Positions 23,509 to 39,706 of a stretch of DNA of 51,381 nucleotides are shown piece after piece. The position numbers and the translations under genes were made by a program. The notes under the pieces are model-generated. The model had not been told where the DNA came from. It was given only the letters and a program-made list of their open reading frames with translations, and searched no databases. Position 1 is the first letter of the stretch. Each line of letters begins with the position of its first letter. The stretch covers positions 1 through 51,381 of the IMG/VR virus record IMGVR_UViG_3300019360_000016; one strand, given 5' to 3'. The stretch comes from a virus.

Positions 23509-23736
23509 CTACATGATGTGGTGAGCCGACCCCTTTACCACAATATCCTCGGTCGGTTGACCGGTAATCCATTCTACATACAACGCCAACGATTTTCCAG
23601 CGGCCCCCTTCGGCCAGTGGAGGTGATGTTCCAGCCGCCCCATAAACCGACCGAACTCCTTGGAGGTCATCACTCCCGTCACCGCCTTCAGGGCATCGTA
23701 CACCGCATTCCCGTCCCGCACTGAGGGTTGATACAT
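23509..23736 (-). CDS. Small protein following the E1-like gene (75 aa)
   Basis: ATG 23736 overlaps the E1-like stop as TAATG. Starts MYQPSVRDGNAVYDALKAVT and contains KSLALYVEWITGQPTED. The short phrase EWITGQ also occurs in the 28666-28878 product (QEWITGQTCP), so the two may be distant relatives. Tight coupling to the E1-like gene makes it a possible accessory of the cassette. Confidence 0.7.
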   Translation of the reverse strand: MYQPSVRDGNAVYDALKAVTGVMTSKEFGRFMGRLEHHLHWPKGAAGKSLALYVEWITGQPTEDIVVKGSAHHIM

Positions 23737-24440
23737 TATCGGTCTCCGTGCAGGGAGAACTGACACTCGGCCTCCAACATCCCATCGTGGACCTTCACCG
23801 GTAGGGCGGACCCCCTCAACCAGTGAGCGTAACACTCCACCGCCCGACTTCCCGCTTTGGCGGCGGTGTAATACGTTGCCTGAGCCGTACACGGAGCGGC
23901 GTAAGCTTTGTGTTGTGGGAACCACTCCGACAAGTAGTGGTCGTAACGTTCCTGATCGGTGATCGGAATAGTGACTCCCGTTTCCAGGCCCATCCGAGTA
24001 TCCACCAAGAATTGCGGTTTCCGTTTTCGGGCCCACAACGAGGTAACAATCAACCTCCGTGCTTCCATGTTGTCAACACACAGGAACACAGCGGCAGTGG
24101 CGGGTATCAACTTCAACCGATCCGCCGTCATCATCTCCGGCAGACACACCACCTTCACCTCCGGATTCCGGTTTCGCAGATCGTGACTCAGGGCTTGCAC
24201 CTTGGGTTGTCCCAAATCCCCATGAAACCAACCCTGGGTTCCCAAGTTCTCTAACGCCACCGTGTCTCCGTCCACCAATGTAATGCGGTTCACGCCCATT
24301 GACACAAGAAGTCGGGCGATCATGGCTCCGATTGCCCCCGTTCCAATCACCGCCACCGGGTGACTGTTCAACAGATCGGGTGGCAGCACTCCGGAAAACC
24401 GGGCCGCTCTCGCCTCAGCCAATAAGGAGGGGGCTTTCAT
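23736..24440 (-). CDS. E1-like (ThiF/UBA) activating enzyme
   Basis: 234 residues. Adenylation (Rossmann) domain: VIGTGAIGAM (nucleotide loop, G33/G35/G38), LVDGDTVALENLG (D57, D59), LGQPK (K80) and FLCVDNMEARR (D123). A candidate catalytic cysteine is C184 in APCTAQATYYTAAKAGS, the position used by small ThiF-type E1 proteins. The usual NLxRQ is NLGTQ. It would adenylate the C terminus of a ubiquitin-like protein, encoded three genes upstream. The start overlaps the JAMM gene by 26 bases, with GGAG upstream. Confidence 0.9.
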   Translation of the reverse strand: MKAPSLLAEARAARFSGVLPPDLLNSHPVAVIGTGAIGAMIARLLVSMGVNRITLVDGDTVALENLGTQGWFHGDLGQPKVQALSHDLRNRNPEVKVVCLPEMMTADRLKLIPATAAVFLCVDNMEARRLIVTSLWARKRKPQFLVDTRMGLETGVTIPITDQERYDHYLSEWFPQHKAYAAPCTAQATYYTAAKAGSRAVECYAHWLRGSALPVKVHDGMLEAECQFSLHGDR

Positions 24441-25281
24441 CTATCTTCTCCAGACAAAGAGGTGTATCCTTGACCAAACCGGACAGTTCTCCGGTTGCCG
24501 CAAACTTCACCAACTCACCACCACTTAACCACCGCCCACCACCCTTGGTGCTGGGCAACTCCACAAACAGGAGTTTCTTCCAGTGCTTCACATCACGAGC
24601 CCTGCCGAGCGGAGCATATTTATCCCGCCGCCCGTCGTAAATACACAGCACTCCGTTTTGATTGATGAACGGCAAATGCATAGCCACCCTGTGTCCGATC
24701 AACGATTCCGACCACGACTTCGCGGTTTCCGTTTTCGGCCACACCTTGGGGCGAACATTAGCCGAATACAATCTCTCCAACTGTTGATCCAAGTCGGCGG
24801 GCACACCGTAGGGGGGAGCCATGTCGAACAAAAACGGAATGGTCTGCTCCAACCGCAGGCCCCGAATTGTGGATTGCACCTTGGCGTAAGTATCTCCGCC
24901 CCGTGCTGCAATCGCCATCACCGCCCAATCAAACAATCCGAACGTTTCCCGAAACACCGCCTCATCTTGGCCGGACGGATGAGCGCTGGTGCCGGGGTGA
25001 CTATGTATCCACACCCTCATGAATTGGCGTGCCTCCCACCCCGCCCCTTCCCACACCTCCAAAATATCCTGAAGGCTGGACGGGCAAAACTCTGTCCATG
25101 CCGGCTCATCGAATTGTACCGGCACAATCAGATCAGTGACCACCAAGCTCTCCGGGTCCGGCGTTACCCCCAACACCGATACCTCAGTCGGCCCTCTCCT
25201 CATCAACCACTGTAACTTCAACCACGCCAGGGGTTTCAGCACCACCTGTGTTGGCGGTTTCTGGGGTCTTGTCTCCGTCAT
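24415..25281 (-). CDS. JAMM/MPN+ metallopeptidase (ubiquitin-like deconjugase)
   Basis: 288 residues. All JAMM residues are present: E33 in PTEVSVLG, H93 and H95 in WIHSHPG, S103 and D106 in HPSGQD (HxH then ten residues then D). Residues 1-160 are the JAB domain; the rest is a second domain (GHRVAMHLPFINQNGVLCIY; KKLLFVELPSTKGGG), as in PRTRC protein A-like proteins. It should cleave isopeptide bonds or trim the ubiquitin-like C terminus, in the cytoplasm. Start has AAAAGGAG upstream and lies 98 bases inside the previous gene. Confidence 0.92.
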   Translation of the reverse strand: MTETRPQKPPTQVVLKPLAWLKLQWLMRRGPTEVSVLGVTPDPESLVVTDLIVPVQFDEPAWTEFCPSSLQDILEVWEGAGWEARQFMRVWIHSHPGTSAHPSGQDEAVFRETFGLFDWAVMAIAARGGDTYAKVQSTIRGLRLEQTIPFLFDMAPPYGVPADLDQQLERLYSANVRPKVWPKTETAKSWSESLIGHRVAMHLPFINQNGVLCIYDGRRDKYAPLGRARDVKHWKKLLFVELPSTKGGGRWLSGGELVKFAATGELSGLVKDTPLCLEKIDESPLLIG

Positions 25282-30248: not shown

Positions 30249-30597
30249 AGTTCGGCATGTCCATTAACTCCGGGGGCAGTAATCCACGGGCAACCATCTC
30301 CCTCGTGTGCATGGCTCCCATAACGTTGAAGGCCATAGCCGCCTCGTGATCCTCGTCCACCATTCCTTGGGCGGCTTTCACCCTATGCCGCTCCAACGAA
30401 TCCATGTAGCGGGAGTACGGTATGCCCCGTTCCCAGTTGCGATCCCCGTATTTGGTGGCACCTAACTCCAACCACCGAGCCAACCGCTCAAGGAGCACCG
30501 GACTGATGAGGTCAAACCGTCCTTTCCCCGCCTGTGTATCGCGGCGTGCTCCGGTATTCCATTCCTGTCGGGTCCCCGAATCCTTCATATCGTACAT
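29833..30597 (-). CDS. MazZ-like (DUF5664) dATP/dGTP pyrophosphohydrolase with overlapping tail
   Basis: 254 residues from ATG 30597 (GAGGAG upstream). Residues 15-110 carry the DUF5664 pattern: KGRFDLISPVLLERLARWLE, LGATKYGDRNWERGIPYSRY and DEDHEAAMAFNVMGAM. Family members hydrolyse purine deoxynucleotides and accompany 2-aminoadenine synthesis in some phages. The last 138 codons coincide with the start of the primase-helicase in another frame and are Pro/Gly/Arg-rich; this tail may be accidental. It follows the HD phosphohydrolase gene with a 13-base overlap. Confidence 0.85.
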   Translation of the reverse strand: MYDMKDSGTRQEWNTGARRDTQAGKGRFDLISPVLLERLARWLELGATKYGDRNWERGIPYSRYMDSLERHRVKAAQGMVDEDHEAAMAFNVMGAMHTREMVARGLLPPELMDMPNYEHRPAGNGETQSSMLPHEVCIGIEEVSEPLREKVSLVGEQLLALLRDTLRGGGIGGLHANANRPVAPNCCYRITGFGVFRNGDRGTFEIGVFLSPRPSDAGKARANRQTQVQDRPPQRDSGPPPLPSGQATGARRPQ

Positions 30598-31139
30598 CCC
30601 AATCTCCTCTGTAACTCTGAGTGAGCAGCCAAAAACTCCTGACGACAATCACGAGCCCCCATCATAAACTCCACGGTTCTCGATGATCCCGGTGCCCTCG
30701 GAAACAGGTTGTCCCGTTCCATTTCTCGCTGGAACATATCCAAATCCTTGACCTCCTGTGGGATCGGCCACATGCCGCTGTAACGGGTAATGATCGTGCG
30801 TAGTAATCTGTTTTCAAATGTCTCCAGACTCAGTACATCAGCGGAGGTGTGTCCCAGACGCATATCGAGATGCTGCTTAATCGGTTGAATGATGTCTCCG
30901 ATGTAGGTCTCCGCCGAGTCGTGGTGCAAGGCGGACACCAAGAATGCGGGGTCCTCGTTAATGAACTTCGCATGTCGGTACACCCTCACAGCATGAGCCG
31001 CAACCGGCCAAGGGATTACCGTGTTCCCGTTGTACCGGTTTTGATTGGCCAAGCTGTGAACAATGTCCCCTATACGTATGGAGGAGGGGAGTAACGGATC
31101 AATGTCCACCTCCCCGGACAGCACACGAACCTTAATCAT
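30585..31139 (-). CDS. DatZ/YfbR-like HD phosphohydrolase
   Basis: 184 residues. HD-fold signature: RIGDIVHSLANQNRYNG, VAAHAVRVYRHA (H49), LVSALHHDSAETYIGDIIQP (H73, D74, E77, D82). The pattern is that of the YfbR and DatZ families; DatZ hydrolyses dATP in phages whose DNA contains 2-aminoadenine. Its neighbour is the MazZ-like gene. It would empty the dATP pool or clean other deoxynucleotides. GGAG precedes the ATG. Confidence 0.87.
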   Translation of the reverse strand: MIKVRVLSGEVDIDPLLPSSIRIGDIVHSLANQNRYNGNTVIPWPVAAHAVRVYRHAKFINEDPAFLVSALHHDSAETYIGDIIQPIKQHLDMRLGHTSADVLSLETFENRLLRTIITRYSGMWPIPQEVKDLDMFQREMERDNLFPRAPGSSRTVEFMMGARDCRQEFLAAHSELQRRLGCTI

Positions 31140-32598: not shown

Positions 32599-33441
32599 TT
32601 ATCCCTTCTTCTTGTCATTGTGGGTCGCCATTGCAGTAATCGACTTCTGGAAGATCGCGTCGTAGGCATCCCACAACTCCGACGAATCTCCGCTCTGTGG
32701 CCACTCCGGAAACTCCTCCGGCAACCAGACACGCGTTTTCGGGTTGGCCAAACTGGTACGCCTTCCGGGACGGGTAGAAACATGGTACAGGAGTTTCTTG
32801 TCCATTTTCTCCTTCCCGGATTTGGGGTCCACGACTGTCACCGGAATCCACTCCAGACCTAGAGTGAATATGTGATGACAGTCCTGCTCCAAATACTTCA
32901 ACACTGAGGCAGGCAGTAGGGCCTCAGTAACAATCTCCTCCTTTTCTCCGGTTTTGGATATGAGTTTCTTACGCAGGTGGTCGGTCATCAACAGCCAATA
33001 ACCAGCCCGAAGTAGTTCCAGCCACATGTTCCGCATGTTAGCGGCCACCTTGTTGTGGTCGAAACCGGTAATCTCCTCCACCCCCAACTGCTTCCGGGTG
33101 TACTCGTTGGCGAAACCGAGGAACCCGCCACCTGGGTCCCAAATCACCACATCGTAACGGCGATCCGGACCATTGGCTTCGGCGTCTGCCAGCAACGTTT
33201 TGTGTACCGCCATATATTCGTCGTGGCTGGACACCTGCAATCGGTCGGAGCGAGGATTGACTACGTATCTACCTCCGCCTCCGGGGTCCGCATCCACATG
33301 AATACTCCTTGGGCACCCTCTGACGAAGGAGGTCTTTCCGCTTCCGGGCAGTCCCCGAATAACGAGAAAGCAGTGGTGAGCCTTGCCTGGGTCGAACTTC
33401 CCGCCGATTGAGAACTTATCCCATCCGACTGACTTGGACAT
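32599..33441 (-). CDS. Sak4-like RecA-fold ATPase
   Basis: 280 residues. Walker A GLPGSGKTS near 31-39; IHVDADPGGGG; Walker B-like YDVVIWDPGG near 108; a sensor region WLLMTDHLRKK. Phage AAA_24/Sak4 ATPases of this size catalyse strand annealing or recombination with an SSB, encoded next. Start at 33441 lies inside the upstream small gene. Confidence 0.82.
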   Translation of the reverse strand: MSKSVGWDKFSIGGKFDPGKAHHCFLVIRGLPGSGKTSFVRGCPRSIHVDADPGGGGRYVVNPRSDRLQVSSHDEYMAVHKTLLADAEANGPDRRYDVVIWDPGGGFLGFANEYTRKQLGVEEITGFDHNKVAANMRNMWLELLRAGYWLLMTDHLRKKLISKTGEKEEIVTEALLPASVLKYLEQDCHHIFTLGLEWIPVTVVDPKSGKEKMDKKLLYHVSTRPGRRTSLANPKTRVWLPEEFPEWPQSGDSSELWDAYDAIFQKSITAMATHNDKKKG

Positions 33442-33649: not shown

Positions 33650-34837
33650 TCAGTTGATTTCCAGTTCAATCGACTTCGCAGTATCTCGGACATACAACCT
33701 CGGAATTATGTGGGCCCACTCCGCCGGGCTCCTCGCCGAACACAGCGGCAGAAACTCACACGGAGCACGTCCTGGTCCCCCCCTACACAGGAACGTATTC
33801 TTGGTGCGGGTAAACTTATGTACCCGCGTAGCCCCACTACAGGCTGCATCCGCTTCCCGCAGGTGGACCTGAAACTCATAGGCCAACACCGGCTCCTCAT
33901 ACCTATGCCAGTAGGGCTCCGGCATGGCGGCGGGACCACCGGCGGTGGAAGTGGGGTGCGTGCCCTCATACCACGACTTCGCTTCCGCCAACCACTCCTC
34001 CGAGGACTGCTTCTGCTTCTGGCGAATGGTCGGACGCTGAATCGCCTCATACACCATACCCACAACCGGAGTGTCCTTCGGCAGCGGGGCGTGGACCGTT
34101 TCCCCATTCAGTGTCGTTGTCACAGTAGCCTTGCCGGATTGGAGATAGGCCAGAGCCGCCAACCTATACATGCGGGTCTGGGGATCGAAGGGGGCAGTGG
34201 AATGAAACTTCACCGGATCATCCCCGGTGATCTTAATGTCTGCCACCCACAACTCCTTCTCCTGGGTGTCGTACATCAACCGATCCATGATGCACTTCAA
34301 CGATGTAGCTAGGCCGGGTAAATCCATGTTGACTTCCACTTCAGTTGCCACCGTTTTGAAATTCTCCGGCAGCTTGTACTTCTCCCAGAACAACTGTGCC
34401 ACCACAGAAGCCAAGGCGAAATCTCCGAGTAGTGACTTCTCCAACTCCTCCTTCGACTTACGACAGTCGGGTTCGGCAGCTATATCTTTGAGGAGTTTCG
34501 CCGTAGCCTTGCGGCCAGCGTTGAGGGCTTCAGACACCCCCACCCCGTCGTGGAGGCTACCGATAATTGCATGGCCAATAGTCCCCGTTTCCCGTGCCGA
34601 CGAGTACCCCTTCTGTTTGAGTTGATACCGATGCCGCAACATGAACTTCATCAGGCAGTCCTGGAGCGTACCGAACATAGACGGGGAGAGGCGGGGTCTC
34701 ACCGACTCCCACCCCACAAACATATTCCAGTTATCGTTGGAGGGCGTACCGGTCCCGGACACCGCCCACTCCTCGAAGGTTTGTACCCCGTTAGTCTTGT
34801 TGTATCCCAGTACCGGTAGGGCAATTGTCTCCGACAT
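33650..34837 (-). CDS. PD-(D/E)XK nuclease, RecB/Cas4-like
   Basis: 395 residues. RLSPSMFGTLQDCLMKFMLR is the classic N-terminal helix with the first cluster cysteine; GTIGHAII follows. The nuclease core is LKCIMDRLMYD and LWVADIKIT (D, then DxK near 220-250), then QTRMYRLAALAYLQ. A C-terminal FLCRGGPGRAPCEFLPLC supplies three further cysteines for an Fe-S cluster, as in Cas4 and AddB. Likely an exonuclease for recombination or host-DNA breakdown. AAAGGA precedes the ATG. Confidence 0.85.
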   Translation of the reverse strand: MSETIALPVLGYNKTNGVQTFEEWAVSGTGTPSNDNWNMFVGWESVRPRLSPSMFGTLQDCLMKFMLRHRYQLKQKGYSSARETGTIGHAIIGSLHDGVGVSEALNAGRKATAKLLKDIAAEPDCRKSKEELEKSLLGDFALASVVAQLFWEKYKLPENFKTVATEVEVNMDLPGLATSLKCIMDRLMYDTQEKELWVADIKITGDDPVKFHSTAPFDPQTRMYRLAALAYLQSGKATVTTTLNGETVHAPLPKDTPVVGMVYEAIQRPTIRQKQKQSSEEWLAEAKSWYEGTHPTSTAGGPAAMPEPYWHRYEEPVLAYEFQVHLREADAACSGATRVHKFTRTKNTFLCRGGPGRAPCEFLPLCSARSPAEWAHIIPRLYVRDTAKSIELEIN

Positions 34838-35378
34838 ACAATCCTTTCAGGAAATCTAAATCTTTACTGTTCCGGGCCTGACGAACATGACTCCACAGCA
34901 CTCGAATCACCGTTTCCCCCAACCGCTTCGGGTTCACCTTGGGGAGCCACAACAACCGAACATTCAGGCGGGCCATCTCCACAAGCAGCTTGTCCAAAAC
35001 CTCATCACTCGACTTGTAGGTTTCGCGGCGAAGTCCCGTGAAGGCATTGAGGTCCCCATCCAGGAGCAGATACTTCACCCCCGGTAGGTCGGCAAACTTC
35101 TGCCACGCCTTACTCGCCCGCACTCGGTCCGACTTGCTGAACCAATTCTTGTAACACTCATCGAGGTCCTTCTTGCGCTCCAGGGCTGCGATGTTCTGCA
35201 AGGCTTGTCCGCTTACTCGTAGGTAATAGTCGCCTGCCGCAATTTGCTCCGTGGTCTGTTGGATGCGGTAGAGCCGAGACTTCCCTGAGATATCCGTCAG
35301 ATACATGGTCTCCGGAAACCGCAACCTATACTTCGGTTTCTCGTTCCGGTCGATCACCACTTCCAAAATCGGGAGCAT
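34791..35378 (-). CDS. ERCC4/XPF-type nuclease
   Basis: 195 residues. D10 in EVVIDRNEKP, GDYYLR (49-54) and the signature ERKKDLD (67-73, ERKx3D), then VKYLLLDGDLNAF, make the ERCC4 nuclease core. Phage members cleave branched or flapped DNA. It overlaps the RecB-like gene by 47 bases and follows the GroES-like gene. Confidence 0.83.
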   Translation of the reverse strand: MLPILEVVIDRNEKPKYRLRFPETMYLTDISGKSRLYRIQQTTEQIAAGDYYLRVSGQALQNIAALERKKDLDECYKNWFSKSDRVRASKAWQKFADLPGVKYLLLDGDLNAFTGLRRETYKSSDEVLDKLLVEMARLNVRLLWLPKVNPKRLGETVIRVLWSHVRQARNSKDLDFLKGLYVGDNCPTGTGIQQD

Positions 35379-35701
35379 CAGGCACCGAAACCTTCAACGA
35401 ACATGGTCTCCCCGGAAGCCGTCACACCGAATGCGAGGACGGTTTTCTCCGGCAACATCAGGTACAGTTGGCCCCCGATTCGGACCTCCTGCCCGCCGTA
35501 CTCACTAAACAATACCCGCATGCCCGGTTTCCAAGTGTTTAGACAGGCATTGCCCACCCCGACCACAGTTCCGGTATTCTCCTGCACCTTGGCGGAATCC
35601 GGCAACTCAATCCCGGTCTCTATCGCCTTCACCGGTGGGTCCGGCACAATCATCAGTTGGGCTCCCACCAGTCTCCACCGAACAGCATCCGTTTTTGCCA
35701 C
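35378..35701 (-). CDS. GroES-like co-chaperonin
   Basis: 107 residues from GTG 35701, with GGAG eight bases upstream. GIELPDSAKVQENTGTVVGV is the mobile loop and first strand pair; PGMRVLFSEYGGQEVRIGG and YLMLPEKTVLAF match the GroES core. It would cap the host GroEL, perhaps to fold capsid or other phage proteins. It is in the early block, next to nuclease genes rather than head genes. Confidence 0.85.
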   Translation of the reverse strand: MAKTDAVRWRLVGAQLMIVPDPPVKAIETGIELPDSAKVQENTGTVVGVGNACLNTWKPGMRVLFSEYGGQEVRIGGQLYLMLPEKTVLAFGVTASGETMFVEGFGA

Positions 35702-36197: not shown

Positions 36198-38879
36198 TTA
36201 CGCCCTGGTGGTGAGGATTTTCACCTCAGCATCCAGGGGGCATGTTCTCCCGTAATGTTGTTCAAGTTGGTGCCAGAAGGGTACATCTCTCAGGTGCCGG
36301 AGACAGACCTCTTCCACCACCGGGTACTCCGCCTTCGGGCATTCCACTAGCATTGAGTCGTAAATCTTCAGGTTGGACATAGCCGCCATGTCTCGTGCCC
36401 TAAACTCCTCCTCCACCCACCATGAGGCGTCAATCAGCGTGTCGGCGGCGAGGGTCTGAATGGGGAAGTTGGATATTTCGTTGATCTTGTTCTGGGTTCC
36501 CCTCACTCCGCCCACAAAGAGTCGTGACTGTCCGAGCACCGGTAGGGCGGCGTACCTAGTCGCCACGGTGGACTTGATCCACTGCTCCTGCCACCGCCCA
36601 AACTCCTTGTGATCGGAGTAGTAGGCGGATATAAGTTTCTGCCAGAATCGCACCGGAAGCAGCAACTTATTGTCCCTCGCGGCTGTCTCCATGAGTTTGC
36701 GGGCTCCGGCTTTGAATAGCACTGCGAAGTTCACCGTTTTCCCCAACTGCCTCCAAGTTTTCACCCCCGGCGTGTCTTTGGTGGCGGTAGGGCCTGAGAA
36801 CAGTTGCTCCAACCAGTCCCGTTCTACTCCGGCGAATTGGTTGAGGTTCCCCGTTTTCATGTAGTCACGCATTTCGCGGAGAATCATCAACCCTGTGGTG
36901 AGGTGTATGTCACGGTCGAGGCGGTAGTCCTCCAGCATCAAGGGGTCCCCTGACACCAAGGCGGCGGTCCTGAGTTCAATCTGGCTCTCATCCCCTTCAC
37001 ACAGGACGCCCGGTGAAAACCGGGTCCACAGGGTGCGTTTCAGCGGCTTCGACAAATTGAGCAGGCCCGGATTGCGGCAGGTAATTCGTCCCTGCTTGGT
37101 GCCCCCCGACGACGTATCCTCAAACTGGCTGGGGATAACGTACCAAGTCGGGTAGGCGGTGTCAGTTAGTAGGCAGGACGCCTTGGAGAGTTCCGTTTGC
37201 CCCTTAACTTTTCTGCCCACCAGAAGCGGACGGGTGTATCGGGAAACGGTGTCTCTGAGAGTTTTGAACCTCTGTATGCACCGAACCTTCCGAGCGGACT
37301 CACAGTAAGGATCAAGATTACCAAGTAGCAGATTGAAGTTCTCATCACCGGCGGATATCTCCTTGGTTTTGGGGGTCCGTTTCACTCGCCGATCATTGTG
37401 GAGATTGGCTAAAATCAATGCCTCCTCCATGACCGCCGAGTACCACCCCTTCACTCCCTTACCGTCCAATTTCCCCTGCCACCTAGTTTGTGCATATCGT
37501 CGTAGTCGGTCTGCACGAACGTTGCTAGTGCCCTGAATCTCGGCAACAACACGGCTGTCGATAGTGACTCCTCGCTCTGAGGCGTACATCGCCCACCACA
37601 ACAATCTATTGTAGTGGTCGTAGCAGGCCGGGGAGAGTTTGTCCGTTTCCGGGTAGTCGCGGCGGATGCTTTCCACCAACGATTCATAGTTGACAAGAGT
37701 GGCCACCGTATCTTTGGCGTTGTAGTCATAAAGTCGAGAGTCCTCCACAGACGGGTAACGATGGGTTTTGAGATTCAGTTCCTCATCGTAGTCAGCCACC
37801 ATGAGGAGTTTGGAGAGGTTCTTGAGGCTGCGTTCTGGCCGAACCTCACTGAACAGGTAGTTAATGACGCCCAATTCAATCAGTTTCCACCGGGTGTGGT
37901 TGAAGGTACGGCCCCACGGATACGCAGCCCGCAGGAACATCACATCAAACGGGATGTTCATACCCAAGAGTGTACGGCAGCCCCGTTTCCAGGAGTAATC
38001 CAGCAGGGCCCTAAACGATTTCCGCCCCTCCCGTGTCTGCATGTTGTATACCGCCGTCCGTAACCCGTCCGGGGTCCTCCATGAAACCGCAGCAGTTTGA
38101 ATGAGTTGATTCCGGCGGCACTGATCTGTCACCAAGGAGCGTGTCGGCTGGAACACGGTCTGCTTGGGGAGGCCCTCTATGCAGCCATAGGTCTCAAAAT
38201 CCAACGATAGGAGGTCGGGCACAAACTCCCCGACGGAGACTGCATTCCACTCCAATGTGGGCACTTCCGCTCTGGTGGGGATGTTTCCCGTTTCCAGGTA
38301 GGTCACAAGGAGATTGAGGTGATCAGCTACGTTGGCGGCTTCCTCTGGGGCCCGGTCCTTCATGAGTGCGGCCGGGTTCGAGGTCCAGAACACCGGCACC
38401 GAAACCGCCCCCACCGACACCGAACGGCCCTGCTGATAGAGGGCCTTCTCCAACGGTTGACTAATTAGGCTGCGGGAGGCTCCGGCACCAGCACCTAGAA
38501 TTACCACCCTCCTGTACTGGGCGGCTAGGGTTGCCACATCTTCCACGAGATGGGCATGGCACTGTTTGTACTGTCCCTGTGTCGGCTTCACATCCTTCGG
38601 GGGGCAACACCTCACCGCATTGGTGACGTAGATATCGGCGAAACGGCTAAGCCCCGCCGATCTCAGGTACACCGACTCAAGTAGTCGTCCGGACGGTCCG
38701 GTGAAGTGGGCGTTGAGGGTGTCCTCCACCACTCCGGGACAATCACCGACAATCAGTAGGGCAGTATCTCCGTTTTCGGGGCCTGACTGTATAAGCCTTG
38801 TACCAATCCCGATGTTGGTACACGTCTCCCAAAGATCACAATTCCGACATTCCGGGTGGGGATTAAGCACTGGCAACAT
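36198..38879 (-). CDS. Family-4 uracil-DNA glycosylase fused to family A DNA polymerase
   Basis: 893 residues from ATG 38879, six bases after the previous stop. UDG4 domain (1-200): C11 and C14, GDCPGVVEDTLNAHFTGPSG, YVTNAVRCCPPKDVKPT and a fourth Cys near 108, the Fe-S set of family 4. The catalytic HPS/A motif reads SNPAAL, Asn for His. Proofreading domain: LLSLDFETYG (DxE), NIPFDVMFL, YNAKD. Polymerase: RITCRNPGLLNLS, DESQIELR (motif A, canonical DYSQIELR), KTVNFAVLF (motif B), KIYDSMLVE (motif C, YDS for HDE). It copies the genome and may excise or sense uracil. Confidence 0.92.
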   Translation of the reverse strand: MLPVLNPHPECRNCDLWETCTNIGIGTRLIQSGPENGDTALLIVGDCPGVVEDTLNAHFTGPSGRLLESVYLRSAGLSRFADIYVTNAVRCCPPKDVKPTQGQYKQCHAHLVEDVATLAAQYRRVVILGAGAGASRSLISQPLEKALYQQGRSVSVGAVSVPVFWTSNPAALMKDRAPEEAANVADHLNLLVTYLETGNIPTRAEVPTLEWNAVSVGEFVPDLLSLDFETYGCIEGLPKQTVFQPTRSLVTDQCRRNQLIQTAAVSWRTPDGLRTAVYNMQTREGRKSFRALLDYSWKRGCRTLLGMNIPFDVMFLRAAYPWGRTFNHTRWKLIELGVINYLFSEVRPERSLKNLSKLLMVADYDEELNLKTHRYPSVEDSRLYDYNAKDTVATLVNYESLVESIRRDYPETDKLSPACYDHYNRLLWWAMYASERGVTIDSRVVAEIQGTSNVRADRLRRYAQTRWQGKLDGKGVKGWYSAVMEEALILANLHNDRRVKRTPKTKEISAGDENFNLLLGNLDPYCESARKVRCIQRFKTLRDTVSRYTRPLLVGRKVKGQTELSKASCLLTDTAYPTWYVIPSQFEDTSSGGTKQGRITCRNPGLLNLSKPLKRTLWTRFSPGVLCEGDESQIELRTAALVSGDPLMLEDYRLDRDIHLTTGLMILREMRDYMKTGNLNQFAGVERDWLEQLFSGPTATKDTPGVKTWRQLGKTVNFAVLFKAGARKLMETAARDNKLLLPVRFWQKLISAYYSDHKEFGRWQEQWIKSTVATRYAALPVLGQSRLFVGGVRGTQNKINEISNFPIQTLAADTLIDASWWVEEEFRARDMAAMSNLKIYDSMLVECPKAEYPVVEEVCLRHLRDVPFWHQLEQHYGRTCPLDAEVKILTTRA

Positions 38880-38884
38880 ACAGG

Positions 38885-39706
38885 TTACACCGCCTTCTGC
38901 ATCCAACGGGGCCACTGATCCAAAGCCGGAGTTGAACCACCGTCCATTACATCCGACGCAATCCCTGCCACCGTGTTGCGGGCTTGGCTGATGGTAAACT
39001 TCGACAGGTCGCCCCGGACTTGGAAGGGTAACGAGTTTTGCGGTTTCGTCGGGAATATACAATCCGTGATGATGAGATGTCCCGGATTGAGGAAGGCACT
39101 GGGACCTTCCACTCTGGGGGCTCGTAGGTTTTGTATGTAGGCGTATCGGAAATTGCCGATACTGGGTGTCCGATATCCTGTGTTCACCTCCACGGCGGTC
39201 ATGAGGATATTCTCGCACTTGTCGGCCAAGATTCCTTTACTTGCCCATCGATCCTGGACCCACTCCTTATCCGGCTTAGCTCCTCCACAGATCACGCCAT
39301 CCAACCAGAGATTTCTAACATTCACCGCCGATAAGGCATCATCACTGGACTGCCTCATAGTGGAATGGCGTATGAGGCACATCTCAATGTCCCCCACCGA
39401 CAGACTCCGCCAGCCACCCAACGGGATTTCCGTTTTCAATTCCTCGATAGGTTTCCCATAGGCGGCGTCGAACAAACAATCGAATATCCCCAAAGCCCCA
39501 ATGTTAAGGAATCCAGTTTGGCCGCTCCGCACCGTCAGTCCTACGGCGGTAACAGAGGCAAAGTCTCGAATCTCCACCGGCTTCTTGACCAGTGTCACGC
39601 CCGGTAACAGCAGCAGGACGGCTCCCGGTTCCCCCTTGATGACGGTGGTAGGGGCATCCGGGGCCTTGTCGATGAGGTCCTGAAGCGTTGAAACTACCTG
39701 TAACAT
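38885..39706 (-). CDS. Right-handed beta-helix (pectate-lyase-like) protein
   Basis: 273 residues from ATG 39706 (GGAG upstream). Repeated short strands (LTVRSGQTGFLNIGALGIFD; SVGDIEMCLIRHSTMRQSSD; AVNVRNLWLDGVICGG; GILADKCENILMTAVEV) are those of a parallel beta-helix such as pectate lyases and tailspikes. No signal peptide. It is the first gene after the early promoter, an odd place for a tailspike. Activity on polysaccharide is possible; the exact substrate cannot be read. Confidence 0.78.
   Translation of the reverse strand: MLQVVSTLQDLIDKAPDAPTTVIKGEPGAVLLLLPGVTLVKKPVEIRDFASVTAVGLTVRSGQTGFLNIGALGIFDCLFDAAYGKPIEELKTEIPLGGWRSLSVGDIEMCLIRHSTMRQSSDDALSAVNVRNLWLDGVICGGAKPDKEWVQDRWASKGILADKCENILMTAVEVNTGYRTPSIGNFRYAYIQNLRAPRVEGPSAFLNPGHLIITDCIFPTKPQNSLPFQVRGDLSKFTISQARNTVAGIASDVMDGGSTPALDQWPRWMQKAV

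What the first reader, a model, noticed from the sequence alone, without database searches (positions are those of the whole stretch)
36198..38879. Uracil-DNA glycosylase fused to DNA polymerase, with altered active sites
The first 200 residues keep the four-Cys Fe-S set and GDCPG motif of family-4 glycosylase, but the usual HPS/A reads SNPAAL (Asn for His). The polymerase part has DESQIELR and YDS instead of DYSQIELR and HDE. The glycosylase may sense uracil or bind it tightly rather than excise it, while tethered to the replicative enzyme.
Basis: partly seen in the sequence, partly recalled or inferred. Interest (0 to 1): 0.72.

Follow-up and report, generated by a model that had tools for sequence, protein, structure and literature searches.

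The report
Phage polymerase with disabled uracil-removal domain
This uncultured phage's DNA-copying enzyme carries a uracil-removing repair domain whose key catalytic amino acids have been replaced, one of at least ten times this has probably happened in related phage polymerases, which suggests the domain is kept to grip DNA rather than to cut out uracil.

Summary
Window 36198-38879, minus strand, encodes 893 aa: a family-4-like uracil-DNA glycosylase (UDG) domain (1-200), a 3'-5' exonuclease with all motifs, and a family-A polymerase with both catalytic Asp. The architecture is known (phages SPO1, PaBG; also Serbin, PMBT14). The polymerase 'alterations' are ordinary: 78 of 82 fusions lack the Glu of HDE (71 have Ala or Ser), and the Tyr of DYSQ varies.

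The UDG change is genuine and larger than reported. Three Thermus UDGa catalytic positions are replaced together (E41 to D46, N89 to D96, H155 to N168), while the four Fe-S cysteines, stacking F59 and uracil-reading N87 stay. Near relatives keep GEAPG and HP, so this is lineage-specific. Across 81 fusions 28 lack at least one of four core residues; the polymerase tree needs 16 changes, 10 on well-supported branches. All 61 bacterial UDG4s sampled (high scorers) are intact. Degenerate domains keep the cysteines and evolve under purifying selection.

Best reading: an excision-deficient UDG fold retained as a DNA-contacting polymerase module; uracil reading is untested. Side results: phage T5 polymerase's N-terminal extension looks like a truncated UDG domain, and some relatives may make the fusion by +1 frameshifting.

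The parts
36198..38879 (-). UDG-exonuclease-polymerase fusion gene, 893 aa plus stop
   Evidence: adjacent to upstream ORF 38885-39706 (-)
38280..38879 (-). Family-4-like UDG domain, residues 1-200
   Evidence: Pfam PF03167 E=2e-14; UDG_fam4 78 bits; AF2 pLDDT 95, VIA Z 21-23 to UDG4/UdgX
38838..38849 (-). First Fe-S cysteine pair C11, C14 (CRNC)
   Evidence: invariant columns in A5; positions
38607..38609 (-). Fe-S cysteine C91
38559..38561 (-). Fe-S cysteine C107
38733..38747 (-). Motif A GDCPG (45-49); D46 replaces E41 of TtUDGa
   Evidence: E41 substitutions impair TtUDGa (PMC5387724)
38703..38705 (-). F59 (TtUDGa F54, in the uracil pocket), kept
38619..38621 (-). N87 (TtUDGa N80, hydrogen-bonds uracil), kept
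38592..38594 (-). D96 replaces N89 (water-positioning residue of TtUDGa)
   Evidence: role from PMC5387724
38376..38378 (-). N168 replaces H155 (leaving-group-stabilising His, motif B)
37680..38210 (-). 3'-5' exonuclease domain; D227, E229, D312, Y386, D390 present
   Evidence: alignment with relatives
36201..37562 (-). Family-A polymerase domain; motif A D630, motif B R710/K714/F718/F722, motif C D841
   Evidence: Pfam PF00476; VIA Z 29 to Bacillus Pol I over residues 205-891
33650..34837 (-). PD-(D/E)XK (Cas4/RecB-like) exonuclease, neighbour in the replication module
   Evidence: Pfam PF12705 E=3e-18; a Cas4-like nuclease lies near 38 of 81 fusions
32599..33441 (-). AAA/Sak4-like recombinase, neighbour in the replication module
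   Evidence: Pfam AAA_24; PHROG 124

Best explanation
This is the family-A DNA polymerase of an uncultured tailed phage, carrying an N-terminal family-4-like UDG fold. In this lineage the fold has lost three residues that drive uracil excision in Thermus UDGa (E41, N89, H155 became D46, D96, N168), while the Fe-S cysteines, the fold and the uracil-contacting F59 and N87 stay. Shown: the architecture, the substitutions, their absence from the nearest relatives, and recurrent loss of UDG catalytic residues across phage UDG-PolA fusions with retention of the Fe-S cysteines. Inferred: excision is lost or very slow. Inferred with less support: the domain is kept because it grips or scans DNA for the polymerase (a built-in tether or processivity module), possibly with residual uracil recognition. 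A glycosylase that cut template uracil at a moving fork would leave abasic sites in single-stranded template, which gives a reason to switch excision off while keeping DNA binding.
For: Window residues and relatives' intact motifs. H155S in TtUDGa lowers k2 by over three orders with Km nearly unchanged, N89A lowers k2 several-fold, E41 substitutions (Asp included) impair activity: PMC5387724. Survey: 28 of 81 fusions lack at least one of E41, aromatic 54, N80, H155, against 0 of 61 bacterial UDG4s. The polymerase tree needs at least 16 changes, 10 of them forced by starred branches. In degenerate domains the Fe-S Cys stay at 96-100%, while A42, G44 and N89, which were not used to define degeneracy, fall to about 40%. 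dN/dS of degenerate UDG domains is 0.05-0.25 in five pairs and 0.54 in Muddy/SweatNTears. The window's UDG branch is not unusually long (UDG/pol ratio 1.28, relatives mostly 0.4-1.7). UDG and polymerase stay genetically linked: fused, adjacent, or overlapping in another frame. A processivity role for the SPO1-type UDG domain has been suggested (PMC5135824).
Against: No biochemistry was found for this clade. H155N and an Asp-Asp-Asn combination were not found in the held text on TtUDGa. The window keeps F59, N87 and E52, so uracil-specific function is not excluded. Most fusions (53 of 81) keep the four core residues, so the ancestral function was probably catalytic. Poxvirus D4, a known case of a UDG serving as a polymerase processivity factor, is recalled from memory and was not tested here. 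No structure with DNA exists for this protein.
Confidence: 0.5

Rival explanations
1. Uracil reader: the domain flips out and binds template uracil without cutting it, so that the polymerase pauses or recruits repair, functionally like the uracil read-ahead pocket of archaeal family-B polymerases.
For: F59 and N87, whose equivalents contact uracil in TtUDGa, are kept, and H155S barely changes Km. Fusion to the polymerase places it near the template.
Against: E41Q and G42D mutants of TtUDGa showed no U-DNA binding, and the window is altered at both positions (D46, C47). Other degenerate fusions lose N80 or F54 as well, so uracil reading is not what is generally conserved. No dUTPase, dCMP deaminase or thymidylate synthase homologue was found in the window with the queries used.
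Confidence: 0.2
2. Still an active glycosylase with rearranged chemistry: Asn at the motif-B position and Asp in motif A give a slow, perhaps mismatch-specific enzyme, as families 2 and 6 also lack the motif-B His.
For: The His is absent in active families 2 and 6 (PMC5387724). N87, F59 and E52 are kept. L138 shows the same H-to-N change.
Against: The family-2 water-positioning Asn (third motif-A position) is absent; the window has C47 there. N89, the other water-positioning residue, is also gone.
Confidence: 0.17
3. A decaying remnant with no function that is merely tolerated.
For: Three catalytic changes in one lineage; in actinophage and T5-like polymerases the domain is further eroded or truncated.
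Against: All four Fe-S cysteines are kept; the predicted fold is confident; UDG divergence is no greater than for the polymerase part; dN/dS is below 1 in other degenerate pairs.
Confidence: 0.1
4. UdgX-like covalent uracil trap.
Against: The R-loop KRRIH with nucleophilic H109 is absent (sequence; alignment); motif A is GDCPG, not GEQPG; UdgX family score 49 bits against a cut-off of 190.
Confidence: 0.02

Closest known systems
SPO1-type / Lupandier (PaBG) phage PolA with N-terminal UDG domain (PMC5135824, PMC7412058)
   Same: UDG, 3'-5' exonuclease and polymerase in one chain
   Different: The window clade is about 30-36% identical to its nearest relatives, has no close cultured member in the phage collection, and the window has three catalytic UDG positions replaced
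Serratia phage Serbin / Pseudomonas phages PMBT14, Almagne DNA polymerase I
   Same: Same fusion; UDG active site also degenerate, by different losses (E41D, F54G, N80P)
   Different: They keep the motif-B His and lie beside thymidylate synthase and dCMP deaminase genes; neither was detected in the window
Family 4 UDGa (Thermus thermophilus, 1UI0)
   Same: Fold, four Fe-S cysteines, F54 and N80 equivalents
   Different: E41, N89, H155 and R161 replaced; fused to a polymerase
UdgX (Mycobacterium smegmatis)
   Same: Fold; Fe-S cysteines
   Different: No R-loop or H109, no GEQPG
phiLo family-A DNA polymerase (PDB 9qhs)
   Same: Solved phage polymerase containing a UDG-like domain (VIA Z 16.0; profile E=3e-23)
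   Different: Longer chain (1142 aa); its UDG active-site residues were not read here

Membership tests
Family 4 uracil-DNA glycosylase (UDGa) | UDG fold with four Fe-S cysteines | tested here: met
   C11, C14, C91, C107; VIA Z 21.5 to 1ui0
Family 4 uracil-DNA glycosylase (UDGa) | Motif A GE(A/G)PG | tested here: not met
   GDCPG
Family 4 uracil-DNA glycosylase (UDGa) | Motif B His (HPA/HPS) | tested here: not met
   N168-P-A
Family 4 uracil-DNA glycosylase (UDGa) | Curated UDG_fam4 score | tested here: not met
   78.1 bits, cut-off 125.3
Family 4 uracil-DNA glycosylase (UDGa) | Uracil excision activity | not testable with these tools
   needs purified protein
UdgX | KRRIH R-loop with nucleophilic His | tested here: not met
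   no insertion between N87 and C107
Phage UDG-exonuclease-PolA fusion polymerases | N-terminal UDG domain, 3'-5' exonuclease motifs, PolA motifs A/B/C in one ORF | tested here: met
Phage UDG-exonuclease-PolA fusion polymerases | Polymerase part groups with other UDG-fused polymerases | tested here: met
   groups with 20 UDG-fused polymerases, SH-aLRT 100* (the tree holds fusions only)

The most novel reading that the evidence does not exclude
Phage family-A polymerases have repeatedly converted a fused uracil glycosylase into a non-cutting uracil reader that senses template uracil during replication, a bacterial-virus counterpart of archaeal polymerase read-ahead; the window is a lineage in which the reading residues survive while the cutting residues are gone.
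Probability: 0.15. Interest if true: 0.75.

Novelty: new variant of a known kind. Interest (0 to 1): 0.47.

Why it matters
Why phages fuse a uracil glycosylase to their polymerase has not, as far as the held literature shows, been tested. If excision is repeatedly discarded while the Fe-S fold is kept, the useful property is DNA engagement (or uracil binding) rather than repair. That can be tested in one fusion and applies to many sequenced phages, including Serbin-like and Muddy-like polymerases and, by the N-terminal similarity found here, T5.

Tried and rejected
Close relatives by single-sequence patterns in viral contigs: none. Genome contigs scan returned only general PolA genes. Literature searches for UDG-polymerase fusions mostly returned nothing; the PaBG and Shbh1 papers were found. 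Link between UDG degeneracy and thymidylate synthase / dCMP deaminase genes: no clear association (11-12 of 53 intact, 9 of 28 degenerate). A phage polymerase-swapping paper does not mention UDG. VIA on the full model tests only the polymerase part. AlphaFold coordinates could not be read in the Python box, so distances in the pocket, including H58 next to F59, were not measured. T5 N-terminus against bacterial UDG4 alone is not significant; it is significant against the fusion profile. The 61 bacterial controls were the top-scoring matches and also seeded the alignment model, so the contrast with fusions is biased in their favour.

Full report
OBSERVATION. The frame 36198-38879 on the minus strand encodes 893 aa starting with ATG at 38879, five bases after the upstream ORF ends. 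Pfam finds UDG and DNA_pol_A. The best PHROG match, a DNA polymerase family, runs from residue 39 to 888, so that family already includes the UDG part.

ARCHITECTURE. AlphaFold2 on the window protein with 21 clade members gives pLDDT 88.4 and pTM 0.87; the UDG domain alone gives 95.2 and 0.92. The UDG model matches UdgX and family-4 UDG structures at Z 21-23 and rmsd 2.2-3.0; residues 205-891 match Bacillus Pol I at Z 29. The exonuclease motifs (D227/E229, D312, Y386/D390) and polymerase motifs (D630, R710, K714, D841) are present. In 82 fusions the residue after the motif-C Asp is Glu in only 4 and Ala or Ser in 71, and position 2 of motif A is Tyr in 53, otherwise Leu, Val, Phe, Ile, Gln or Glu. 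So YDS and DESQ are not anomalies.

THE UDG ACTIVE SITE. Mapped to Thermus UDGa, the window has E41 to D46, G42 to C47, N89 to D96, H155 to N168 and R161 to K174, and keeps E47 (E52), F54 (F59), N80 (N87) and the four Fe-S cysteines. In Thermus UDGa H155 stabilises the leaving uracil (H155S: k2 from 0.23 to 7e-5 per second, Km nearly unchanged), N89 positions water, and E41 substitutions impair activity (PMC5387724). H155N itself was not found in that text.

IS IT CLADE-WIDE? Profile searches in IMG/VR gave about 70 relatives. The nearest fused ones (L017-L020, L097-L101) keep GEAPG and a motif-B His where the region is present. H-to-N recurs only in L138; the His is also lost in L102 and L125. 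No close cultured member was found in the phage collection.

WIDER SURVEY. Of 81 UDG-PolA fusions, 28 lack at least one of E41, aromatic 54, N80 or H155 (H155 of four split alignments was read, the partial L021 was left out and Muddy was added by hand). On a quick tree of the polymerase part the state changes at least 16 times, 10 of them forced by starred branches; changes on an unrooted tree do not by themselves tell loss from regain. All 61 bacterial stand-alone UDG4s are intact, with the caveat that they are the top-scoring matches. In the 26 degenerate fusions that could be scored the Fe-S cysteines are 96-100% kept, while A42, G44 and N89, which do not define the class, drop to about 40%. 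dN/dS in degenerate UDG domains is 0.05-0.25 in five pairs and 0.54 in Muddy/SweatNTears, somewhat above the polymerase part. The window's own UDG branch is 1.28 times its polymerase branch, inside the range of most relatives. This is selective erosion of the pocket with the fold kept, not general decay.

GENE LINKAGE. In the window's superclade UDG and polymerase are fused, or are separate neighbouring ORFs with SMUG1/MUG-like GMNPG or GQNPG in place of GEAPG, or overlap in a +1 relation. In the overlap, variable columns sit at the UDG third codon position upstream and switch to the polymerase third position about 24 bases before the exonuclease motif codons. That fits +1 frameshifting, though an upstream TTG/ATG start of the polymerase is not excluded.

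FUNCTION. The most economical reading is that excision is lost or very slow here, and that the domain is retained for DNA engagement by the polymerase. A processivity role of the SPO1-type domain has been proposed (PMC5135824). A uracil-reader role is possible because F59 and N87 remain, but changes at E41 or G42 abolished detectable U-DNA binding in Thermus UDGa. Neither role has been shown.

KNOWN VERSUS NEW. UDG-exonuclease-PolA fusions are known (PMC7412058; PMC5135824) and one UDG-containing phage polymerase structure is deposited (9qhs). In the literature I could search I found no account of recurrent active-site loss in them; the searches were limited to open-licence papers.

Noticed in passing
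L323:11098-13665 (phage T5 pol), also L318, L320, L321, L322: The N-terminal extension of phage T5 DNA polymerase looks like a truncated UDG4-like domain: hhalign 96% and E=1e-9 against the fusion UDG profile, E=5e-10 against the actinophage N-domain, shuffles under 1%. Not significant against bacterial UDG4 alone.
   Followed up: partly
L148, L151, L155, L157, L158, L162, L163, L166, L167, L170, L172 (about 24-36 bases before the pol exoI codons): UDG ORF overlaps the polymerase ORF in a +1 relation; third-codon-position variation switches frame at a conserved GACATYCARCCNSCCMGAYCCCC site, suggesting +1 frameshifting that makes UDG alone or UDG-Pol. A TTG/ATG start upstream is not excluded.
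   Followed up: partly
L120-L176 separate UDG ORFs: UDGs next to, but not fused with, the polymerase often carry GMNPG or GQNPG (SMUG1/MUG-like) in motif A together with YHPAA.
   Followed up: no
window 23736-24440 and 24415-25281 (-): E1/ThiF-like adenylyltransferase (Pfam E=5e-27) next to a JAB-domain protein: a possible phage ubiquitin-like conjugation cassette.
   Followed up: no
window 35378-35701 (-): Cpn10/GroES-like protein (Pfam E=4e-11), downstream of the polymerase.
   Followed up: no
window 30585-31139 (-): HD/YfbR-like deoxyribonucleoside 5'-monophosphate phosphatase (PHROG 318, E=1e-26).
   Followed up: no
L006, L007, L008, L009 (Muddy, SweatNTears, Triscuit, KimJongPhill): Actinophage DNA polymerases keep a strongly eroded UDG domain at the N-terminus (hhalign 99.7% to the fusion profile, Pseudomonas phage SM1 in the same alignment), annotated only as DNA polymerase I.
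   Followed up: partly
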